DNA of 23,934 nucleotides from a virus: IMG/VR virus record IMGVR_UViG_3300044948_000139, positions 1 through 23,934 of that record; one strand, 5' to 3'. The notes beneath the pieces are model-generated. The model saw only the letters and a list, made by a program, of their open reading frames with translations. It ran no database searches and was not told where the DNA came from. The position numbers were made by a program, and so were the translations under genes. Below, one piece after another: positions 20,014-20,103 of the stretch. Every line of letters begins with the position of its first letter. The stretch's first letter is position 1.

Positions 20014-20032
20014 GTATATACAATCTATATAC
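20014..20032. other. AT-rich hairpin between convergent genes
   Basis: GTATATA / TATATAC is a perfect 7-bp inverted repeat around CAATC, lying exactly between the DUF3310 stop and the pqqA stop. It is too AT-rich for a strong terminator but is well placed as a weak bidirectional one. Confidence 0.35.
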
Positions 20033-20103
20033 TATTTGTTCATTACGTACATAGTAACTTCAAAGCCAAAACGCATTTCAGTAGCTGCTGGTGATGTCCA
20101 CAT
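20032..20103 (-). CDS. pqqA: PqqA, PQQ precursor peptide, 23 aa
   Basis: The peptide starts [19 protein letters not shown] and ends VMNK. It matches the recalled PqqA consensus ([20 protein letters not shown] and two to four more residues) at most positions and has the same length. Glu15 and Tyr19 of the invariant E-V-T-x-Y are in the exact register used by the radical SAM enzyme PqqE, with the chaperone PqqD, to form the carbon-carbon cross-link that becomes pyrroloquinoline quinone. AAGGA sits about nine bases before the ATG. The gene stands alone on the - strand between two rightward operons, with no pqqB, C, D, E or F nearby. One peptide is consumed per PQQ, so the phage could raise cofactor supply using host enzymes. 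Confidence 0.93.
   Translation of the reverse strand: [23 protein letters not shown]

What the first reader, a model, noticed from the sequence alone, without database searches (positions are those of the whole stretch)
20032..20103. Phage-encoded pqqA: the peptide precursor of PQQ
A 23-codon gene with an AAGGA ribosome site encodes [19 protein letters not shown] plus four residues. By recalled consensus this is PqqA, with Glu15 and Tyr19 in the exact E-x3-Y register that PqqE joins. It lies among unambiguous phage genes. I know of no well-characterised phage system that supplies this substrate, though I cannot search. Because PqqA is consumed one for one, a 72-base gene would be the cheapest way for a virus to push PQQ output.
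Basis: partly seen in the sequence, partly recalled or inferred. Interest (0 to 1): 0.93.

Follow-up and report, generated by a model that had tools for sequence, protein, structure and literature searches.

The report
Phage gene for PQQ precursor peptide
A virus that probably infects methanol-eating bacteria carries a tiny gene for the peptide from which such bacteria make the cofactor PQQ, and the same overlooked gene turns up in hundreds of other viral sequences, including unrelated phages grown in the laboratory.

Summary
On the minus strand, window 20032-20103 encodes [23 protein letters not shown] behind an AAGGA site. It passes the curated cut-offs of both PqqA models (37.9 vs 21.1 bits; 34.4 vs 20). 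The window is a phage record. Its terminase is 64% identical to that of Methylophilales phage Venkman, and its peptide is of the Methylophilaceae type.

It is not isolated. A peptide search of phage records found pqqA in nine Methylophilales/Methylophilaceae records; no feature listed there names it. In IMG/VR, 497 of 497 pattern loci encode PqqA, five of them cut by contig ends. None has pqqBCDE nearby, while 19 of 20 host genomes have pqqE. The gene has its own RBS and 3' hairpin, and two related contigs show an empty site.

Best reading: a substrate-only metabolic gene that feeds host PqqD/PqqE to sustain PQQ-dependent methanol oxidation. Expression, modification and benefit are inferred. 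Viral PqqA has been reported (Lake Baikal VP_266, PMC7678222); the breadth, the orphan cassette and the non-annotation I found in no paper. Against universality: 3 of 40 terminase-related records hold it.

The parts
20032..20103 (-). pqqA coding sequence (23 codons + TAG): [23 protein letters not shown]
20112..20116 (-). AAGGA ribosome-binding site, 8 nt before the ATG
   Evidence: sequence; an RBS-like motif is present at 493 of 495 viral pqqA genes, window and five isolates included
20151..20156 (-). CATAAT, candidate -10 element of pqqA's own promoter (weak: the promoter scan did not list it)
   Evidence: sequence; scan; the TATAAT-like excess over shuffles is small in the viral set (0.67 vs 0.57, n 486)
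20014..20032 (-). 3' stem-loop directly after the stop codon (7-bp stem, 5-nt loop)
   Evidence: fold z -3.04 for the 60 nt that hold it and a second stem; 3' structure beyond shuffles is common in viral and host pqqA
20010..20204 (.). approximate extent of the pqqA cassette, absent in relatives L655 and L656 (empty site)
   Evidence: boundaries read from an alignment with L655, so approximate
20205..20233 (+). sigma-70-like promoter of the downstream plus-strand leader; a similar stretch stands at the empty site of L655
   Evidence: alignment
19761..20009 (+). DUF3310 / phage nucleotide-kinase-like gene flanking the cassette; another sequence stands here in L049, L390 and L655
20386..20760 (+). 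unnamed phage gene on the other side
   Evidence: no PHROG or Pfam match; conserved in relatives
22172..23443 (+). large terminase: shows a phage genome and places it near Venkman (64%) and the Manatee Spring podovirus (62%)

Best explanation
The gene is a functional viral pqqA, acquired from a Methylophilaceae-type host and kept as a monocistronic cassette. During infection the phage makes extra PqqA. The host's PqqD and PqqE bind it and join Glu15 to Tyr19, and the remaining host enzymes finish PQQ. PqqA is consumed one molecule per cofactor, so it is the part of the pathway most sensitive to a stop in host gene expression. A 72-base gene therefore keeps, or raises, the PQQ supply for methanol dehydrogenase and so the energy of the infected methylotroph. 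Shown here: the gene is PqqA by profile, lies in phage genomes, is conserved, is widespread, and lacks the other pqq genes nearby, while hosts of the same PqqA type have PqqE. Inferred: the window's own host, expression, modification by host enzymes, limitation by PqqA, and benefit to the phage.
For: Profile matches over curated cut-offs. Phage setting. pqqA in nine Methylophilales/Methylophilaceae phage records (found by that search itself, so no rate), from phages with unrelated terminases. 497 of 497 IMG/VR pattern loci are PqqA. Residues outside the search pattern are also kept: P5 and R11 in 366 of 366 distinct 69-nt viral genes, R11 through five codons. pN/pS at codons 3-12 and 20-23 is 0.31; in hosts, at codons 3-7 and 20-23, 0.34. 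E15 and Y19 kept in 119 of 119 readable loci of an independent scan. 0 of 497 viral loci have pqqBCDE against 30 of 120 host loci. PqqE over cut-off in 0 of 50 long viral records and in 19 of 20 host genomes. Those 20 hold 1-12 pqqA copies; a paper reports 3-12 copies in Methylophilaceae with, but for one exception, single copies of the other genes (PMC4109929, passages). pqqAB overexpression raised PQQ by 29% in Acetobacter pasteurianus (PMC7936290, passages).
Against: No expression data and no biochemistry. Carriage is patchy: among terminase relatives only 3 of 40 records hold PqqA and 6 of 80 loci by a looser pattern. At least four of the 80 are cut before the site, but L655 and L656 span it, with 90% terminase identity, and lack it. 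L655-type phages might infect another host or simply do without. Dosage may matter little when the host already has several copies. In A. pasteurianus the full operon raised PQQ eightfold, pqqAB by 29% only, so PqqA alone may not be limiting. On the window's own lineage selection is weakly resolved: against six close relatives, 11 synonymous and 5 nonsynonymous differences in all, and L390 alone has 3 nonsynonymous to 2 synonymous.
Confidence: 0.8

Rival explanations
1. Host DNA misbinned as viral, or a passenger gene without function.
For: IMG/VR can hold bacterial fragments (recalled); the 'phages' collection itself holds what looks like a bacterial contig (Acinetobacter 'phage' MD-2021a with pqqB, pqqC, pqqD and a radical-SAM gene). 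28 of 50 long viral records showed no phrog_2 terminase. The gene is missing in L655 and L656.
Against: Isolated phages with sequenced genomes carry it. No pqqBCDE near any of 497 viral loci. 22 of 50 long records have a phrog_2 terminase, a test that misses other terminase types and fragments. Constraint over deep synonymous divergence.
Confidence: 0.03
2. The peptide is a decoy or sink: it occupies PqqD/PqqE and starves the host of PQQ, or has a role outside PQQ.
For: Expression and product are not known; phages often inhibit host enzymes (general knowledge; no call).
Against: A decoy has no need to keep both cross-linked residues, yet E15 and Y19 are kept in 119 of 119 readable loci. The window peptide is practically the host's own substrate.
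Confidence: 0.07
3. Extra PQQ protects the infected cell from competing phages by occupying a PQQ importer used as receptor (superinfection exclusion), rather than feeding dehydrogenases.
For: PQQ blocks infection by PqqU-targeting E. coli phage IsaakIselin, and modelling suggests that closed PQQ-bound PqqU cannot bind it (PMC12124388, passages).
Against: I did not test whether Methylophilaceae have PqqU or whether their phages use it; the association with methylotroph hosts is explained more simply by methanol dehydrogenase.
Confidence: 0.04

Closest known systems
PqqA family (PF08042 / TIGR02107), Methylophilaceae type
   Same: Length, start, W2, P5, R11, E15, Y19; profile score over cut-off; nearly the same peptide as many Methylophilaceae copies
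   Different: Encoded by a phage, with no pqqBCDE seen in the window; Ser at position 4 is rare in the host set (1 of 113 distinct host genes)
Viral population VP_266, Lake Baikal (Coutinho et al. 2020, PMC7678222)
   Same: A phage of Methylophilaceae with a PqqA gene, proposed to support methanol oxidation
   Different: Reported in a T4-like virus together with methanol dehydrogenase. The window phage is of the Venkman/HTVC010P terminase group and, as far as its 23.9 kb shows, has pqqA alone. That paper says P19250A encodes none of the metabolic genes it reports; P19250A does hold pqqA, unannotated
Auxiliary metabolic genes of phages in general (e.g. cyanophage psbA, recalled)
   Different: Supplies a ribosomal peptide that is the substrate of a cofactor pathway, not an enzyme or structural protein

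Membership tests
PqqA (PF08042, TIGR02107) | Score over the curated profile cut-off | tested here: met
   37.9 vs 21.1 bits; 34.4 vs 20 bits
PqqA (PF08042, TIGR02107) | Glu and Tyr in E-x3-Y, the atoms of PQQ | tested here: met
   E15, Y19 in the window; 119 of 119 readable loci in an independent scan
PqqA (PF08042, TIGR02107) | Bound by PqqD and cross-linked by PqqE | not testable with these tools
   needs purified or expressed enzymes
PqqA (PF08042, TIGR02107) | The rest of the pathway is available in the cell | tested here: inconclusive
   PqqE over cut-off in 19 of 20 genomes with Methylophilaceae-type PqqA (18 titled as Methylophilales taxa or OM43, 2 as Nitrosomonadales); but that the window's host is one of this family is inferred from terminase and peptide, and PqqB, C, D were not searched in whole host genomes
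Phage auxiliary metabolic gene | Lies in a real phage genome | tested here: met
   terminase, endolysin, Sak, YqaJ, SSB in the window; isolates
Phage auxiliary metabolic gene | Derived from host metabolism | tested here: met
   host-type peptide; no tree was made, 69 bases being too short
Phage auxiliary metabolic gene | Expressed in infection and changes host metabolism to the phage's gain | not testable with these tools
   no transcript or infection data available

The most novel reading that the evidence does not exclude
A stand-alone pqqA cassette is a recurrent, independently acquired trait of phages of PQQ-dependent methylotrophs (at least five phage types among the records seen), probably hidden because gene callers skip 72-base genes. 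These viruses hold host methanol oxidation open by supplying only the single-use substrate of a cofactor pathway, and so influence one-carbon turnover in lakes and sea with a 72-base gene.
Probability: 0.5. Interest if true: 0.85.

Novelty: new variant of a known kind. Interest (0 to 1): 0.74.

Why it matters
It would show that a virus can steer a cofactor pathway by supplying only its consumable peptide substrate. It offers a cheap marker for phages of methylotrophs. It also corrects public records: nine Methylophilales/-aceae phage records and one spring podovirus carry a metabolic gene that no listed feature names, including P19250A, which a paper says has none of the metabolic genes it reports. 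Cultivated phage-host pairs exist, so the claim is directly testable.

Tried and rejected
Nucleotide search of the whole window against phages at roughly 85% identity or more: no match. Rfam: no family; tRNAs: none. 5' leader hairpin: the window leader shows none (z 0.01), and the family-wide effect is weak (mean z -1.19 viral vs -0.48 control), so I do not claim one. The promoter scan lists no sigma-70 site for pqqA. Methylophilales phages MEP431-434 (named in taxonomy) are not among the rows listed in my phage-collection searches; those listed all 13 records, 50 of 1560, 25 of 2288, all 24 and 40 of 1943. Whether they are held, or hold pqqA, is unknown. Melnitz's terminase was not compared. 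The Escherichia phage ERS-1 hit (E 10, 56%) is treated as chance; the two Acinetobacter 'phage' hits are treated as bacterial DNA (one of the two was opened). Papers on Melnitz, MEP301 and MEP401/402 were searched by terms only: no PQQ gene is mentioned; the Melnitz paper names PQQ once, as an ingredient of the OM43 growth medium. The P19250A genome paper did not turn up as a library paper in my searches and was not seen. A sample of 274 genomes of the class had PqqA in 38; I made no further use of it.

Limits of counts: and searches stopped at 120 rows, so 497 is a lower bound on loci; at least one contig gave two loci (L502 and L504). Positions 13-19 are fixed by the search pattern in the viral set and 8-19 in the host set, so invariance there is no evidence; hence the separate scan. 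Of the 497 loci, 8 lacked an M-W start by my rule: 5 cut by contig ends, 3 variant starts; these 8 are left out. Folding used the first 160 viral sequences per region after removal of near-duplicates.

Full report
Observation. The minus strand of the window at 20032-20103 encodes [23 protein letters not shown], preceded by AAGGA. The peptide passes the curated cut-offs of PF08042 (37.9 vs 21.1 bits, E 1.7e-9) and TIGR02107 (34.4 vs 20). The DNA pattern for GFEVTMY occurs once in the window and in none of 100 shuffles.

Setting. The window is a virus record of 23,934 bases. It holds a large terminase, endolysin, holin-like protein, Sak annealing protein, YqaJ exonuclease, SSB and a replication initiator. 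The terminase is 64% identical to that of Methylophilales phage Venkman, 62% to a Manatee Spring podovirus and about 45% to HTVC010P-type pelagiphages. None of the 28 Pelagibacter records counted in that search is among the 13 records with a PqqA-like hit.

Host type. Of the 80 titles listed, 64 name Methylophilales taxa or OM43; 16 bear wider names (Betaproteobacteria, Burkholderiales, Nitrosomonadales and the like). The 120 loci hold 130 such peptides, most of the form MWT[KT][16 protein letters not shown][MC]N[KR]. The window's peptide has that form, with Ser at position 4.

Isolates. A peptide search of 50,697 phage records gave 13 hits: eight Methylophilales records (MEP301, MEP401, MEP402, Venkman, four Melnitz isolates), P19250A, the Manatee Spring podovirus, two Acinetobacter 'phage' contigs and one chance-level Escherichia phage hit. 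The Acinetobacter contig that I opened carries pqqB, pqqC, pqqD and a radical-SAM gene and looks bacterial. In the six phage records that I opened, no feature on the pqqA strand covers it; in MW202481 and Melnitz the annotated 'hypothetical protein' is on the opposite strand. For the other four, one search lists 'none' (MEP401) or 'hypothetical protein' (three Melnitz isolates). The terminases of the window group, P19250A, MEP301 and MEP402 show no meaningful similarity between groups (best E 0.005 over 39 residues). With Melnitz, filed under Kyanoviridae and not compared by terminase, that makes at least five phage types. Terminase searches with P19250A, MEP301 and MEP402 showed no further Methylophilales record in the rows listed (25 of 2288, 24 of 24, 40 of 1943), only relatives on other hosts, none of them among the pqqA hits. 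Since the nine records were found through pqqA itself, they give no carriage rate.

Environmental viruses. A degenerate pattern for GFEVTMY in IMG/VR stopped at 120 rows. Five disjoint sub-patterns gave 120, 120, 120, 17 and 120, together 497 loci. All 497 encode a PqqA-like peptide, five of them cut by a contig end, although the pattern fixed only seven residues. A second scan that fixed only the front half gave 120 loci, 113 already known and 7 new. Six of the 7 could be read to the end; all keep Glu15 and Tyr19 while varying at M18 or V16. That is 119 of 119 readable.

Not host debris, and substrate only. None of 497 viral loci (each at most about 15 kb) has pqqB, C, D or E nearby, against 30 of 120 host loci found with a similar pattern. 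Of 50 long viral records, chosen by length and holding PqqA by that choice, 22 have a phrog_2 terminase, 0 have PqqE over cut-off (three show weak radical-SAM matches) and 1 has methanol dehydrogenase. Of 20 host genomes (18 titled as Methylophilales taxa or OM43, 2 as Nitrosomonadales), 19 have PqqE over cut-off; the one miss is a 0.9-Mb genome. PqqA copies number 1 to 12. That agrees with a paper on Lake Washington Methylophilaceae, which reports 3-12 pqqA copies beside, with one exception, single copies of the other genes (PMC4109929, passages). So the host lineage multiplies the substrate gene and not the enzymes, and its phages appear to do the same.

Constraint. Among 366 distinct 69-nt viral genes, P5 and R11 never vary, R11 through five codons. 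Over codons not fixed by the pattern, pN/pS is 0.31 for viruses (codons 3-12, 20-23) and 0.34 for hosts (codons 3-7, 20-23). Among the six closest relatives of the window the data are thin: L070 and L081 are identical in pqqA, L049 has one synonymous change, L373 2 and 1, L053 6 and 1, L390 2 synonymous and 3 nonsynonymous.

Anatomy. An RBS-like motif precedes 493 of 495 viral genes. The 60 nt after the stop fold better than shuffles (mean z -2.53, 62% below -2, first 160 after removal of near-duplicates), against -0.48 and 12% in an upstream control; hosts show -4.07 and 89% (n 126; control -0.46 and 11%). In the window the 60 nt behind the stop give z -3.04. In 152 of 398 viral loci both neighbours run opposite to pqqA, against 11 of 108 host loci. 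Relatives L655 and L656 span the site and lack the gene. In L655 the upstream gene's end and a downstream plus-strand promoter-like stretch are kept, and roughly 200 bases with pqqA are missing. The cassette thus looks like a self-contained unit that is gained or lost. Of eight contigs other than the window that I compared across the site, six hold it (L049, L053, L390, L667, L669, L663) and two do not (L655, L656). L049, L053 and L390 were first found through pqqA, and L667 appears to be the contig of L373, also found so; this is no frequency estimate.

Result against universality. Among terminase relatives fetched without regard to pqqA (best 80 of at least 600), PF08042 matches 3 of 40 records of 7.9 kb or more, and a looser pattern 6 of 80 loci. 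At least four of the 80 are cut before the site (L650, L652, L653, L654), and many may have other hosts, but the trait is not fixed in this clade.

Mechanism. Established knowledge (recalled; in part restated in PMC9851590, passages): PqqE, with chaperone PqqD, joins Glu and Tyr of PqqA, and the peptide is consumed. Inference: when a lytic phage stops host expression, PqqA falls first, and a phage copy restores it for methanol dehydrogenase. Support from dosage: pqqAB overexpression raised PQQ by 29% in A. pasteurianus; against it, the whole operon raised it eightfold (PMC7936290, passages). Expression and modification of viral PqqA are untested.

Prior art and novelty. Searches with pqqA or PQQ and phage or virus terms (one search listed 30 of 50 papers) gave two direct reports: PqqA in Lake Baikal VP_266 with methanol dehydrogenase (PMC7678222, section read), and pqqA, pqqE, pqqD listed among reservoir-sediment viral genes (PMC13188868, passages). 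A third paper links a PqqA-annotated peptide family in bacteria to defence systems and possible phage interactions (PMC11118758, passage). PMC7678222 states that P19250A has none of its reported genes; searches show that P19250A has pqqA. I found no paper in these searches that reports pqqA in cultivated Methylophilales phages or its breadth. Hence: new variant of a known kind.

Noticed in passing
L729 (viral record G007, 33000-43000; contig IMGVR_UViG_3300025120_009955): A 72-kb viral record carries a methanol dehydrogenase ORF of 624 aa (608 bits), directly followed by a 946-aa ORF that looks like a formate dehydrogenase alpha subunit (recalled resemblance, not searched), plus pqqA about 6 kb away: possibly several methanol-oxidation steps in one phage.
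   Followed up: partly
window 20234-20385 (+): Between a plus-strand promoter-like site and the gene at 20386 lies a leader of about 150 bases, conserved in relatives, with a terminator-like hairpin at 20249-20270; it persists at the empty site of L655 in altered form. Possible small RNA or attenuator; no Rfam match.
   Followed up: no
L147, L150, L215, L225, L233 (genome-contig loci): Tandem pqqA pairs about 200 bases apart with different peptides (MWTQP..VCN[KR] and MWT[KT]P..VMNK).
   Followed up: no
L128 (CAKLQF020000010.1): A record filed as 'Acinetobacter phage MD-2021a' looks like bacterial DNA: pqqB, pqqC, pqqD, a radical-SAM gene and polyphosphate kinase around the PqqA hit.
   Followed up: partly
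L122 2067-2195 and L127 3961-4056: Annotated 'hypothetical proteins' on the strand opposite pqqA in MW202481 and Melnitz are probably spurious.
   Followed up: partly
L018, L024, L028, L004, L025, L079, L075: Some viral PqqAs are not of the Methylophilaceae type (such as ..[32 protein letters not shown]..[16 protein letters not shown]), suggesting phages of other PQQ producers.
   Followed up: no
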